Shown here in pieces: positions 13,805 to 16,839 of a stretch of 22,114 nucleotides of DNA. The DNA lies in the IMG/VR virus record IMGVR_UViG_3300035670_007999, positions 1 to 22,114 of that record, one strand, 5' to 3'. Position 1 is the stretch's first letter. Every line of letters begins with the position of its first letter. Made by a program: the position numbers and the translations under genes. The notes under the pieces were generated by a model. The model was not told the origin of the DNA and made no database searches. It saw only the letters and a program-made list of their open reading frames with translations. This DNA comes from a virus.

Positions 13805-13832
13805 GTCATTGGTCAGCGGTCATTGGTCATTG
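13805..13832. repeat. heptad array, 4 units
   Basis: GTCATTG, GTCAGCG, GTCATTG, GTCATTG lie just upstream of the protease/scaffold start (minus strand). No inverted arm follows; instead a different hairpin begins at 13844. Confidence 0.85.
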
Positions 13833-13843
13833 GTTGAAGAGTC

Positions 13844-13875
13844 GCCGAGAAAAGCGGCGGAAAAGTTTTTTCGGC
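13844..13875. other. inverted repeat upstream of plus-strand cassette
   Basis: GCCGAGAAAA (13844-13853) and TTTTTTCGGC (13866-13875) make a 10-bp stem (one G-T pair) with a GC-rich loop. It sits between the heptad array and the plus-strand promoter. On the plus strand it could end transcription arriving from the left, or belong to the repeat element. Confidence 0.5.
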
Positions 13876-13891
13876 AAACGGGAAATAATTG

Positions 13892-13919
13892 TTGACCTTT
13901 ACGCAGATTTGCGTAAATT
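13892..13919 (+). promoter_or_regulatory. promoter with operator palindrome
   Basis: TTGACC (13892-13897) and TAAATT (13914-13919) are spaced 16 nt as -35 and -10. A perfect inverted repeat TTTACGCA, GATT, TGCGTAAA (13898-13917) fills the spacer and overlaps the -10. This is the classic site for a repressor acting on its own promoter; the next gene encodes a helix-turn-helix protein. The start codon is about 50 nt downstream. Confidence 0.7.
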
Positions 13920-13969
13920 GATCTCGTCAGCGGCAATGATGCCAACGACCAACCAACAAGACCAAAGCC

Positions 13970-14203
13970 ATGCAAATCACCTGTAACCACTCCGCAAGTT
14001 CCTACGGCATTCCCGTTATCCTGGGCGATGACGGGAAGGTCATGGACTACGCACCAGGCATCAAGGCGATCCGCGCCAAACGCGGATGGAGCACACAAGA
14101 ACTGGCCGACAAGTGCGGCGTTTCCCGCCGCACCGTCGAGGGCTGGGAGGCCGGCCGCATGCCGGAGGCCCGCTGCTTGAACATCATGGCCACCCTTGTC
14201 TGA
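13970..14203 (+). CDS. XRE-like helix-turn-helix regulator (77 aa)
   Basis: Residues about 30-62 hold a helix-turn-helix (GIKAIRAKRGWSTQELADKCGV followed by SRRTVEGWEAGR), typical of XRE-type regulators. The N-terminal 29 residues (ITCNHSASSYGIPVILGDDG) form a short beta-like region not usual for the family. It follows a promoter with an operator-like palindrome, so autoregulation is likely. The next gene starts 3 nt after its stop. The cassette lies between the protease and the portal gene, opposite in strand to both. Confidence 0.75.
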   Translation: MQITCNHSASSYGIPVILGDDGKVMDYAPGIKAIRAKRGWSTQELADKCGVSRRTVEGWEAGRMPEARCLNIMATLV

Positions 14204-14206
14204 TCC

Positions 14207-14506
14207 ATGCCGCGCATCCGTTACGACTGGTCCCAGGTTGACTGGACGCGGCCGAGCGCTGAGATCGCGCTCTATCTCGGTTGCTGCGGGCAATCCGTCG
14301 CCGCCGCCCGCCGCCGCTACAACAAGCGCCGCGGCGCTGGCATTAAATGCAATTGGCTGGTGGTCACGCCGGACGGCCAGCGAATCCATGTGCGCAACCT
14401 TAAGGCATGGTGCGGCGGGAACCACACGCTGTACTCGGGTTTGATCGCCGTGGCCAATGGCCGATCCCATGCCTATGGCGCGGGCTGGCTGATAAGCCGC
14501 GCATAG
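14207..14506 (+). CDS. small DNA-binding protein, HTH plus NUMOD-like module (99 aa)
   Basis: The N-terminal part (WSQVDWTRPSAEIALYLG then QSVAAARRRY) is a helix-turn-helix of the kind found in small phage proteins. Residues about 50-99 (VVTPDGQRIHVRNLKAWCGG.., SGLIAVANGRSHAYGAGW) follow the pattern of the DNA-binding mini-domains that accompany homing endonucleases, with the typical closing GW. There is no HNH or GIY-YIG nuclease. Starting with ATG at 14207, it is coupled to the regulator upstream, and a terminator follows. The role is unknown. Confidence 0.65.
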   Translation: MPRIRYDWSQVDWTRPSAEIALYLGCCGQSVAAARRRYNKRRGAGIKCNWLVVTPDGQRIHVRNLKAWCGGNHTLYSGLIAVANGRSHAYGAGWLISRA

Positions 14507-14531
14507 ACCAGCTGACATAACAAACACCAAT

Positions 14532-14567
14532 CCCGCCCGCCGCCCCGTCGGTGGCGCGGGGTTTTTT
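14532..14567 (+). terminator. rho-independent terminator of plus-strand cassette
   Basis: CCCGC pairs with GCGGG and an inner GCCGCC pairs with GGTGGC (two-base bulge), followed by GTTTTTT. It closes the transcript of the two DNA-binding genes and keeps it from running into the portal gene on the opposite strand. Confidence 0.85.
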
Positions 14568-14593
14568 GTCGGGTGGTGAGTGGTCATGAACAA

Positions 14594-14621
14594 GTTATTG
14601 GTCATTGGTTATTAGTCATCG
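14594..14621. repeat. heptad array overlapping the portal C-terminus
   Basis: GTTATTG, GTCATTG, GTTATTA, GTCATCG. The portal stop is inside, and the last residues of the portal (PMTNNQ) are encoded by the array. No hairpin core or inverted arm is seen. Confidence 0.8.
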
Positions 14622-16839
14622 GGGTAGAAACTCCCAGATAGGCGTCTGCCATCTGGCGGACGAGTTCGGCTTCGGTGGCGGCGGCGTCGGTGAGATCCGG
14701 CAATGATGCGGAGATTTTTTTCAGCGCGCCGCGGATGGCCGGCAAATCCTTGGCCCGATACGCAGCCTCCAGCGCTTTGCCGATGGGCTGCATGTCCGCT
14801 GCGAGCGCCGTGCGCAGGGCCTGCATGGACTGGTCAACGGTGGATCGGTCATCGGTCACCGGGGAAGATGCGATGTTAGCCGCGGTGGTTTTGTTGGCTG
14901 ATAGTTTTTTTGGAAATCGTTGCGACACAGGCACGATGCTTCCTTCCTTCGTCCTGATTACGGCTTCGGCGGAAATGATCATTTGTTTTTCATCCGCTGA
15001 AACCGGGTCGAATATAACCGCTCCGTCAGGAGTTTTGAACCCTACCTCTTTACGGCTTGTGGAATCGTAATTGTCGAACCAAAAATTGGATACGGCATCC
15101 CGATTGTCCCAAAATCCTGCGCTTTCAATAATTTTTGGAGGATTGAGCGCGCTTGATGCCGCGTCCATTGCGGACCCTCCATTGTCTTTTGCCCACTGGA
15201 TAAAGTTTGGATCTTTGGCGACATATCCGACCGCCCATTTCGGAACCGGTGGAAAATCAGAACTCTTTGCCAAGTATTTCGAATCGCCGTAATGATCGTT
15301 TCCGATATTTGGATTATGAGGATTCCAATCTGCCAGGAGCACCACGTTGGAGCTGTCTTTGATGCTTTCGGATCCTCTATAGTGGGACAAATCATATCCG
15401 GCGGAAAATGCAGCCTTATCAAAAATTTCTTGTGCCTTTTCCAGGTCACCGGATGCGACGGCAGCTAAATAATCCGCATCTATCTGATTGGTTTCAAGCG
15501 ATCCGGATTCCATTTGTTTGACCCATTGGCCGCCCTCGCGCACGCCCTTGGGATTGCGGGCTTGCAGCGGGTTGTAGGCGTTGAGTGCGGTGGTTTGCGT
15601 TTCCCCGAGCGCCTCCTCATCCGCATCAGCTTCGACGATGCCGAATTTGTTGGTGAACCAGGATTTGGAGATCCGGACGCCCATGGTCTTGGCTTTTTCG
15701 ACGATGGTGATTTCCTGTTGCAGGTTGTCGCGGGTCTTGGTGCGGAGTATCAGCTCGCAGAGGACCGGAGCGTTTTTCCCGAAGTGCCAGGCGATCACCT
15801 GCGCCGTTAGATTGCGGTTGATGGTTTCGGAAACCCATGCGGAGTTGTCGGCATCGAGTTCGTCGGAGTCTTCCTGTTGCGGGTTGGAGCCCACGCCATC
15901 CTGCATGGCCATGGTGGACAGGTCCCCGCCGCGCCAGAGGCGGACCTGGGCGCGGTCCATGCGGTCGATGAGTTTGACATACGGCACTTCGCCCTGAGTG
16001 GCCAGGTTGAGGACGTCGATCATGTCGCCCTGGTTGATCACGGCGCCGAACTCGCTGCCCATGGTGGCCACGGCCTCGGCCATGTCGGTCCAGCCGGTGC
16101 TGCCCTTTTGCGCGGTGGTTTTTCCGAGGAACGCGGGCATGCCGTGGCGGTCGCAGTAGGTGAGCCAGTCCTGGAGTGGGATTTGCTTGAACATGCGGGC
16201 GAGCACGCCGGCGAGCATGACGCCGCGACCTTTGGAGATCATCCACGCGTTGCGGCCGCCGAGGGTTTCCAGATCCACGCCGCGCTGGGCGGAGTAGGTG
16301 GGCAGGAATTTCATCTTGCCGGTGGTCACCTCGAAAAACCAAGTGGGCACCTTGACCAGCTCCGCATTGAGTTGTCCGCGCGTGGGCATCCAGATGATGT
16401 GATGCGCGGCGTAGCCTTTGCCATAGGCGTCCATGATCTGTTGGACTAACAAACGCATGCCGCCGGATTCCTCCAGCTCCACCGCGTCGGATACTTTCAG
16501 GAACTGAAAGAACGCCTGCAACACTGCCTGTTGTTTTTCCGCCAGAGGCTTTTGCTCGGGCGTGATTTCGTCCTTGGGTAGCACATCATAGCCCCAGCGA
16601 CTGACTGCCGCCTTGGCTTTGGGAGCGACGGTGGAAATCACGTCGTCATGTTTCTCCAGCCATTCCATCACCCAGGCCAGCGCGGCAATCTCGCCGCGGC
16701 TGTAGGCCTCCAACTGACGCACCAAGACATCCGGAGTCCACCCGCGAAGCGGGTTGAAGCGCGATTGTTTTTCGAGCTTCACGCGTTCCGCGCTAACAGG
16801 GCGGCCGTCGGGGCCTAGAATGGTGCTTGGTTTGCTCAC
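14602..16839 (-). CDS. DUF935-type portal protein with an ART/polyvalent-like insertion (745 aa)
   Basis: Residues 1 to about 425 are a DUF935 (Mu gp29-like) portal core (GEIAALAWVMEWLEKHDDVISTV, YGKGYAAHHIIW, DWLTYCDRHGMPAFLGKT). A linker RNPKGVREGGQWV (428-440) and a helix (about 452-478, YLAAVASGDLEKAQEIFDKAAF) lead into AGYDLSHYRGS (480-490) and on to IISAEAVIRTKEGSIVPVSQRF (621-642). Both patterns resemble the edges of ART-like domains of MuF and polyvalent proteins (AGYxxxxYHGT, IKSADPVTYDDxGNVIPLSERF). Residues about 665-745 resemble the normal DUF935 tail. The start is GTG at 16839, overlapping the upstream stop. Mu gp29 is about 500 residues, so the extra length is the insertion, and it is lower in G+C. 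Confidence 0.85.
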   Translation of the reverse strand: MSKPSTILGPDGRPVSAERVKLEKQSRFNPLRGWTPDVLVRQLEAYSRGEIAALAWVMEWLEKHDDVISTVAPKAKAAVSRWGYDVLPKDEITPEQKPLAEKQQAVLQAFFQFLKVSDAVELEESGGMRLLVQQIMDAYGKGYAAHHIIWMPTRGQLNAELVKVPTWFFEVTTGKMKFLPTYSAQRGVDLETLGGRNAWMISKGRGVMLAGVLARMFKQIPLQDWLTYCDRHGMPAFLGKTTAQKGSTGWTDMAEAVATMGSEFGAVINQGDMIDVLNLATQGEVPYVKLIDRMDRAQVRLWRGGDLSTMAMQDGVGSNPQQEDSDELDADNSAWVSETINRNLTAQVIAWHFGKNAPVLCELILRTKTRDNLQQEITIVEKAKTMGVRISKSWFTNKFGIVEADADEEALGETQTTALNAYNPLQARNPKGVREGGQWVKQMESGSLETNQIDADYLAAVASGDLEKAQEIFDKAAFSAGYDLSHYRGSESIKDSSNVVLLADWNPHNPNIGNDHYGDSKYLAKSSDFPPVPKWAVGYVAKDPNFIQWAKDNGGSAMDAASSALNPPKIIESAGFWDNRDAVSNFWFDNYDSTSRKEVGFKTPDGAVIFDPVSADEKQMIISAEAVIRTKEGSIVPVSQRFPKKLSANKTTAANIASSPVTDDRSTVDQSMQALRTALAADMQPIGKALEAAYRAKDLPAIRGALKKISASLPDLTDAAATEAELVRQMADAYLGVSTPMTNNQ
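14833..14861. repeat. heptad element inside the portal gene
   Basis: GTCAACG, GTGGATC, GTCATCG, GTCACCG lie in frame within the portal coding sequence at about residues 660-669 (VTDDRSTVDQS), just after the ART-like segment. The bases after it (GGGGAAGATGC) resemble the core start of the elements at 6634 and 12519. Most of the inverted arm is absent. Confidence 0.75.

What the first reader, a model, noticed from the sequence alone, without database searches (positions are those of the whole stretch)
14602..16839. Portal protein carries an ART/polyvalent-toxin-like insertion
The DUF935-type portal is about 245 residues longer than Mu gp29. The extra part starts after a linker (RNPKGVREGGQWV, 428-440) and a helix ending in DKAAFSAGYDLSHYRGS, and ends with IISAEAVIRTKEGSIVPVSQRF (621-642). 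Both edges resemble those of ART-like domains normally attached to MuF head proteins (MVDEAAxxAGYxxxxYHGT ... IKSADPVTYDDxGNVIPLSERF). G+C in two 60-base samples is 45 % (15061-15120, 15241-15300) against 63 % in a sample of the portal core (16081-16140), so it was probably acquired. If the portal end enters the virion it could deliver an effector, modify virion or host proteins, or be an inactive relic. I could not place a catalytic triad; the Arg488-Gly in YRG is the only candidate I see.
Basis: partly seen in the sequence, partly recalled or inferred. Interest (0 to 1): 0.8.

Follow-up and report, generated by a model that had tools for sequence, protein, structure and literature searches.

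The report
Phage portal carrying an ADP-ribosyltransferase-like cassette
A structural protein at the DNA gate of a Mu-like phage has taken up a foreign enzyme-like module of the ADP-ribosyltransferase type, with its predicted active-site residues intact, so the phage head probably carries an effector in an unusual place.

Summary
The 745-residue ORF is a Mu-type portal (Pfam Portal_Mu, E 7e-48). Its close relatives (about 63-82 % identical) all lack the extra part. GC at third codon positions drops from 78 % to 45 % at residues 441-647, exactly the stretch between a short adaptor and the portal's C-terminal helical domain. The extra part is a complete cassette with the same edges as ADP-ribosyltransferase (ART) cassettes of giant polyvalent phage proteins. 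Its interior is a small domain that Pfam, PHROGs and NCBIfam do not recognise; I found it framed in polyvalent proteins, in a MuF-like protein and as free ~120-residue proteins. A confident model of a compact relative (pLDDT 94) resembles ARTs: five of the six solved structures with Z 2 or more are ART folds, with AcrIF11 best at Z 6.2. The ART His-Tyr-Asp residues map to His486, Tyr517 and Asp605, all present; Arg488 is not conserved. Sequence profiles do not link the interior to ART-PolyVal or AcrIF11. Related portals carry other effector-type domains, and portal-effector fusions are published. This is therefore a new variant of a known kind: an undescribed ART-like subfamily placed inside, not after, a portal. 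Activity and delivery are inferred.

The parts
14602..16839 (-). Portal gene with internal cassette, 745 aa (P0001)
15637..16668 (-). Portal_Mu (PF06074) core, residues 58-401
   Evidence: Pfam E 7.3e-48
15520..15579 (-). Adaptor linker AYNPLQARNPKGVREGGQWV, residues 421-440; residues 428-440 still have the high GC3 of the portal (11 of 13)
   Evidence: Same motif A[FY][ND]PxQxR..(..)G..W precedes extra domains in the L089 portal and the L088/L089 MuF-like protein; GC3
14899..15519 (-). Acquired low-GC cassette, residues 441-647
   Evidence: GC3 change-point; absent from relatives
15394..15471 (-). Cassette prefix YLAAVASGDLEKAQEIFDKAAFSAGY, residues 457-482 (two helices in the model)
   Evidence: Shared with ART cassettes of polyvalent proteins; helices H15-27 and H31-44 of the model
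14989..15393 (-). ART-like core, residues 483-617
   Evidence: Family alignments A3/A4/A6; models and fold comparison
15382..15384 (-). His486 codon, strand 1, predicted NAD-site histidine
   Evidence: Alignment A6; position of AcrIF11Pae2 His20
15289..15291 (-). Tyr517 codon, after strand 2, predicted NAD-site tyrosine
   Evidence: Alignment A6; position of AcrIF11Pae2 Tyr46
15025..15027 (-). Asp605 codon, hairpin between strands 4 and 5, predicted catalytic acid
   Evidence: Alignment A6; position of AcrIF11Pae2 Asp146/Glu147
14914..14979 (-). Cassette suffix IISAEAVIRTKEGSIVPVSQRF, residues 621-642
   Evidence: Same suffix ends ART cassettes
14626..14850 (-). Portal C-terminal helical domain resumes, residues 664-738
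   Evidence: Aligns with L002, L005 and L119 portals

Best explanation
The portal gene of this Mu-like phage took up, in frame, a complete cassette of about 207 codons. The cassette landed right behind an adaptor linker, in the variable linker between the portal core and the portal's C-terminal helical domain. It encodes a small ADP-ribosyltransferase-fold domain with the residues expected for NAD+ binding and catalysis (His486, Tyr517, Asp605). Shown here: the insertion, its foreign composition, its kinship with framed cassettes of polyvalent proteins, an ART-like predicted fold and the conserved triad positions. Inferred: the domain faces the inside of the head as part of the portal ring, is an active mono-ADP-ribosyltransferase, is freed by the head maturation protease encoded downstream (or acts while portal subunits are still free in the producing cell), and modifies a host or defence protein early in infection.
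For: Insertion: portals L002, L003, L004, L005 and L120 (about 63-82 % identical) lack it. Foreign origin: GC3 0.449 at residues 441-647 against 0.781 elsewhere. Cassette: phmmer matches over the whole length to modules in polyvalent proteins, 1.2e-26 (L077) and 1.2e-20 (L026, where it sits between two other cassettes with the same edges); 42 distinct cassettes share the edges, most with ART-type interiors; ART-PolyVal is recognised in L026. Fold: window model pLDDT 80, whose only two PDB matches over more than 100 residues are ARTs (8dwq = AcrIF11Pae2, and 6fkg MbcT); BFVD hits are ART-PolyVal-like proteins, E 8.7e-6; compact relative pLDDT 94, six chains with Z 2 or more: 6kyf AcrIF11 (Z 6.2, 106 residues, 3.8 A), cyanophage A4 pre-ejectosome (5.6), diphtheria toxin (4.1), 8dwq AcrIF11Pae2 (3.9), MbcT (3.9), Tpt1 (2.9). 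Triad: His20/Tyr46 and Asp146/Glu147 are needed for AcrIF11Pae2 activity (PMC12421852); the matching residues are present here. Carrier role: the 70 %-identical portal L119 ends in PBECR3; portal and MuF-like protein of L089 carry extra domains after the same adaptor.
Against: The Z scores are moderate and Foldseek alone gave no significant PDB hit. Profile comparison of the interior with ART cassette interiors or AcrIF11 found nothing. The four most distant relatives lack the histidine and three members have Asn instead of Asp (74). Portals are not known to leave the virion, and the cassette is internal, so delivery would need cleavage on both sides; no second adaptor is seen after the cassette.
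Confidence: 0.75

Rival explanations
1. The domain is an ART-fold protein without enzymatic activity (a decayed or binding-only cassette) tolerated in a flexible portal linker.
Against: The reading frame is open over the whole cassette and all three predicted residues are present in the window; relatives from unrelated phages keep the same residues.
Confidence: 0.25
2. The domain works in place as part of the portal, for example modifying or protecting the portal-terminase apparatus during packaging, and is never delivered.
For: It is tethered on both sides inside a structural protein that stays in the capsid; PMC9503650 mentions countering immunity aimed at the packaging apparatus as an option.
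Against: The same cassettes occur in giant polyvalent proteins and near internal virion proteins, which are thought to be injected.
Confidence: 0.2
3. The extra residues are an ordinary portal domain (crown, barrel or wing) of this lineage.
For: Position between core and C-terminal helices.
Against: Absent from relatives at about 63-82 % identity; GC3 break; homologues lie in non-portal proteins.
Confidence: 0.02
4. An assembly artefact joined a polyvalent-protein fragment to a portal.
For: The window is a metagenomic virus record; only one copy was found.
Against: Both junctions are in frame, the portal's C-terminal domain resumes after the cassette, and the composition break coincides with the cassette edges.
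Confidence: 0.04

Closest known systems
ART-PolyVal cassettes (PF18760; Iyer et al. 2017, PMC5512222)
   Same: Same edge motifs; same order of H, Y and D along the chain; found side by side in tandem in L026
   Different: Interior has no detectable sequence similarity to ART interiors; carrier is a portal, not a giant polyvalent protein
AcrIF11 anti-CRISPR ADP-ribosyltransferase (6KYF, 8DWQ; PMC12421852)
   Same: Best solved-structure match in fold (Z 6.2 and 3.9); H, Y and D/E at the same topological places
   Different: No sequence-profile similarity; AcrIF11 is a free protein, this one is fused to a portal; target unknown
Portal- and MuF-effector fusions (PBECR, 2H, Nudix, ART; PMC5512222, PMC9503650)
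   Same: Effector-type domain fused to a packaging-module head protein
   Different: Here the domain lies inside the portal, before its C-terminal helical domain; PBECR3 in the related L119 lies after it
MuF toxins (Jamet et al. 2017, PMC5576092)
   Same: ART-type domain carried by a head protein of the packaging module
   Different: No MuF domain in this protein; the relatives' portal gene is followed directly by the protease gene

Membership tests
Mu-type portal (PF06074) | Portal_Mu profile match above cutoff | tested here: met
   164 bits, cutoff 23.9, residues 58-401
ADP-ribosyltransferase superfamily | ART fold (two small beta sheets) | tested here: met
   Two AlphaFold2 models; 5 of the 6 chains with Z 2 or more are ART-fold proteins, best Z 6.2; moderate scores, so a solved structure is still needed
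ADP-ribosyltransferase superfamily | Catalytic H - Y - E/D in strand 1, after strand 2, around strand 5 | tested here: met
   His486, Tyr517, Asp605 by alignment and topology; spatial geometry not checked
ADP-ribosyltransferase superfamily | NAD+-dependent ADP-ribosylation | not testable with these tools
   needs biochemistry
ART-PolyVal (PF18760) | Profile match | tested here: not met
   No hit for the insert or its subfamily up to E 10 or E 1; hhalign probability 0.3 %
ART-PolyVal (PF18760) | Polyvalent-protein cassette edges (AGY... and IKSADPVTYDDxGNVIPLSxRF) | tested here: met
AcrIF11 | Sequence-profile similarity | tested here: not met
   hhalign probability 0.2 %; no PDB sequence hit
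AcrIF11 | ADP-ribosylates Csy1 and blocks type I-F CRISPR | not testable with these tools
   needs assay
MuF toxins | MuF domain | tested here: not met
   No MuF match in P0001 in Pfam, PHROGs or NCBIfam
Portal-effector fusions (Iyer 2017, 2022) | Portal domain and effector-type domain in one open frame | tested here: met

The most novel reading that the evidence does not exclude
Portals of this phage lineage act as carriers of exchangeable effectors behind a fixed adaptor (A[FY][ND]PxQxR...G..W). The inserted cassette is an active, AcrIF11-like ADP-ribosyltransferase that the head protease cuts out of the portal ring and that enters the cell with the DNA to disable a host defence.
Probability: 0.15. 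Interest if true: 0.8.

Novelty: new variant of a known kind. Interest (0 to 1): 0.52.

Why it matters
It adds an ART-like subfamily, absent from Pfam, PHROGs and NCBIfam, that can be tested at once because the active residues are predicted. It also shows a portal gene that has gained an effector cassette next to near relatives with the empty site, a clean case for asking whether portals, and not only MuF or giant polyvalent proteins, carry effectors into the cell and how they would be freed.

Tried and rejected
Searches with the insert alone in viral contigs and genome contigs gave no relatives, because exact 8-residue patterns missed the divergent interior; searching with the edge motifs solved this. 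The ChewyVIII phage hit lies antisense to annotated genes and was dropped. PHROG and Pfam hits of the insert were weak and inconsistent, except phrog_7449 (a 1714-position profile, E 0.007), which fits a polyvalent protein. A role for Arg488: relatives have Lys-Gln-Arg, Arg-Gln-Arg or no Arg there. Profile links to ART-PolyVal interiors and to AcrIF11 were sought and not found. The domain was not found in the annotated phage and plasmid collections, and in only one of 289 genomes drawn from the phylum of L005. ORF 13820-14605 (-) after the portal looked like a further late gene but has no family hit and overlaps two + strand ORFs, one with an HTH match.

Full report
1. Observation. Window 14602-16839 (-) is one open frame of 745 codons with a Mu-type portal core at residues 58-401 (Pfam E 7.3e-48). 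Portals of near relatives were found in three virus contigs (L002, L003, L004), in a Lentisphaerae MAG (L005) and, by the genome search, in further genomes of that phylum. L002-L005 and L120 (about 63-82 % identical) go from the core through a short variable linker straight into the C-terminal helical domain. L119 (70 %) does the same and adds a domain at its very end. The window alone has about 210 extra residues in that linker. GC3 breaks sharply: the best two-segment fit gives residues 441-647 with GC3 0.449 against 0.781 for the rest; eight other genes never fall below 0.668 over 205 codons. Residues 428-440 (RNPKGVREGGQWV) still have high GC3 (11 of 13), so part of the adaptor probably belongs to the recipient side.

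2. What the insert is. The edges match the frame of ART cassettes in large polyvalent proteins. A scan with the edge motifs brought 80 loci. phmmer with the insert matched whole modules in L077 (1.2e-26) and L026 (1.2e-20) and edge motifs in many others. In the held sequences 42 distinct cassettes run from prefix to suffix; most interiors are recognisable ARTs (YHGT ... GYDGI), while the window falls in a cluster of seven. In L026 this subtype sits in tandem between two other cassettes, and Pfam recognises ART-PolyVal in that protein.

3. The subfamily. Iterated searches gave a family with LSHRR ... N..YG ... DIVDSAGAWDD..FVS..W ... G..T.DGAV..D. It occurs framed in polyvalent proteins, in a MuF-like protein (L088/L089), at the C-terminus of larger proteins (L097, L099, L102), and as free proteins of about 115-165 residues (L091, L093, L098, L101, L103, L136, L140). 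None of the members scanned has a convincing Pfam or PHROGs hit in the domain, and the window insert has none in NCBIfam. Only 1 of 289 genomes drawn from the phylum of L005 has a match.

4. Fold and active site. The window cassette modelled with 14 relatives gives pLDDT 80 and pTM 0.76. Its BFVD hits are ART-PolyVal-like proteins (E down to 8.7e-6), but these share the frame as well. Its only PDB matches over more than 100 residues are 8dwq and MbcT. A compact relative without the frame (L093, 118 aa, 19 sequences) gives pLDDT 94 and pTM 0.83. Among 521 PDB chains aligned, six reach Z 2: AcrIF11 6kyf 6.2, cyanophage A4 pre-ejectosome chain 5.6, diphtheria toxin 4.1, 8dwq 3.9, MbcT 3.9, Tpt1 2.9. 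8DWQ is AcrIF11Pae2 (PMC12421852). Five of the six are ART folds (MbcT, diphtheria toxin and Tpt1 from general knowledge); the pre-ejectosome domain I could not identify. Individual Z values are modest, and Foldseek alone was not significant, so the argument rests on which structures come up. Polyvalent ARTs use H in strand 1, Y in strand 2 and D in strand 5 (PMC5512222). AcrIF11Pae2 needs His20/Tyr46 and Asp146/Glu147. By alignment and topology the window has His486 in strand 1, Tyr517 after strand 2 and Asp605 in the hairpin between strands 4 and 5. Across 19 members the histidine is kept in 15 (two of these counted by inspection), the tyrosine in 17 and the aspartate in 16, with Asn in the other three. 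Arg488 is not conserved.

5. Surroundings. In the relatives the protease gene follows the portal gene directly, where Mu has MuF (from general knowledge). In the window two + strand ORFs lie between portal and protease, one a helix-turn-helix protein. Other portals also carry extra domains: L119 ends in PBECR3 (E 1.5e-9) and L130 in a weak PBECR1 match (E 4e-4, below cutoff). L089 has a Portal_Mu protein (E 3.6e-74) with about 340 extra residues after two adaptors, and the next gene, MuF-like by its position and appearance (no Pfam match), carries this same ART-like cassette after the same adaptor. The adaptor A[FY][ND]PxQxR..(..)G..W occurs in the held sequences only in these proteins and in the window portal.

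6. Mechanism. Shown: an acquired cassette, in frame, with an ART-like predicted fold and intact predicted active residues. Likely, from the families named: the domain lies inside the head with the portal ring (portal C-terminal regions face the capsid interior; general knowledge) and is an ADP-ribosyltransferase. Inferred only: release by the head protease and entry with the DNA, or action in the producing cell; a host or defence target.

7. Known or new. Fusions of PBECR, 2H, Nudix and ART domains with portals or MuF are published. New here are the ART-like subfamily, its place inside the portal before the C-terminal helical domain, and the direct view of empty and occupied sites. I file it as a new variant of a known kind.

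Noticed in passing
window 13970-14203 (+) and 14207-14506 (+): Two ORFs on the opposite strand between portal and protease, one with an HTH_3 match (E 7e-9), the other without a Pfam hit; relatives have no genes there. Looks like a small inserted module within a late operon.
   Followed up: partly
L119 697-2775 (-): Portal 70 % identical to the window's ends in a PBECR3 nuclease-like domain (Pfam E 1.5e-9).
   Followed up: yes
L130 1081-3603 (+): Portal of 841 aa with a possible zinc-ribbon and a weak PBECR1-like domain at its end.
   Followed up: partly
L089 37-2454 (+) and 2453-5095 (+): Portal with two adaptors and extra domains, one containing a GHHR motif as in ParB-like domains (no Pfam hit), followed by a MuF-like protein carrying the same ART-like cassette as the window.
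   Followed up: partly
L088 1-2454 (+) versus L089 37-2454 (+): Two contigs share the MuF-like gene, but upstream one has a 2065-aa polyvalent protein that ends in the same tail as the other's portal: recombination or an assembly join.
   Followed up: no
L101 3878-4369 (+): A free copy of the ART-like domain beside the terminase and portal genes of another Mu-like phage, on the opposite strand.
   Followed up: partly
L148 390-962 (-): A divergent relative in a 2471-aa protein of a genome from the phylum of L005, with YVHGR and FYAG motifs that look intermediate to ordinary ARTs.
   Followed up: partly
whole subfamily, e.g. window residues 577-578: An invariant Trp-Asp (IVDSAGAWDD motif) in the helical part is more conserved than the proposed triad; its role is unexplained.
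   Followed up: no
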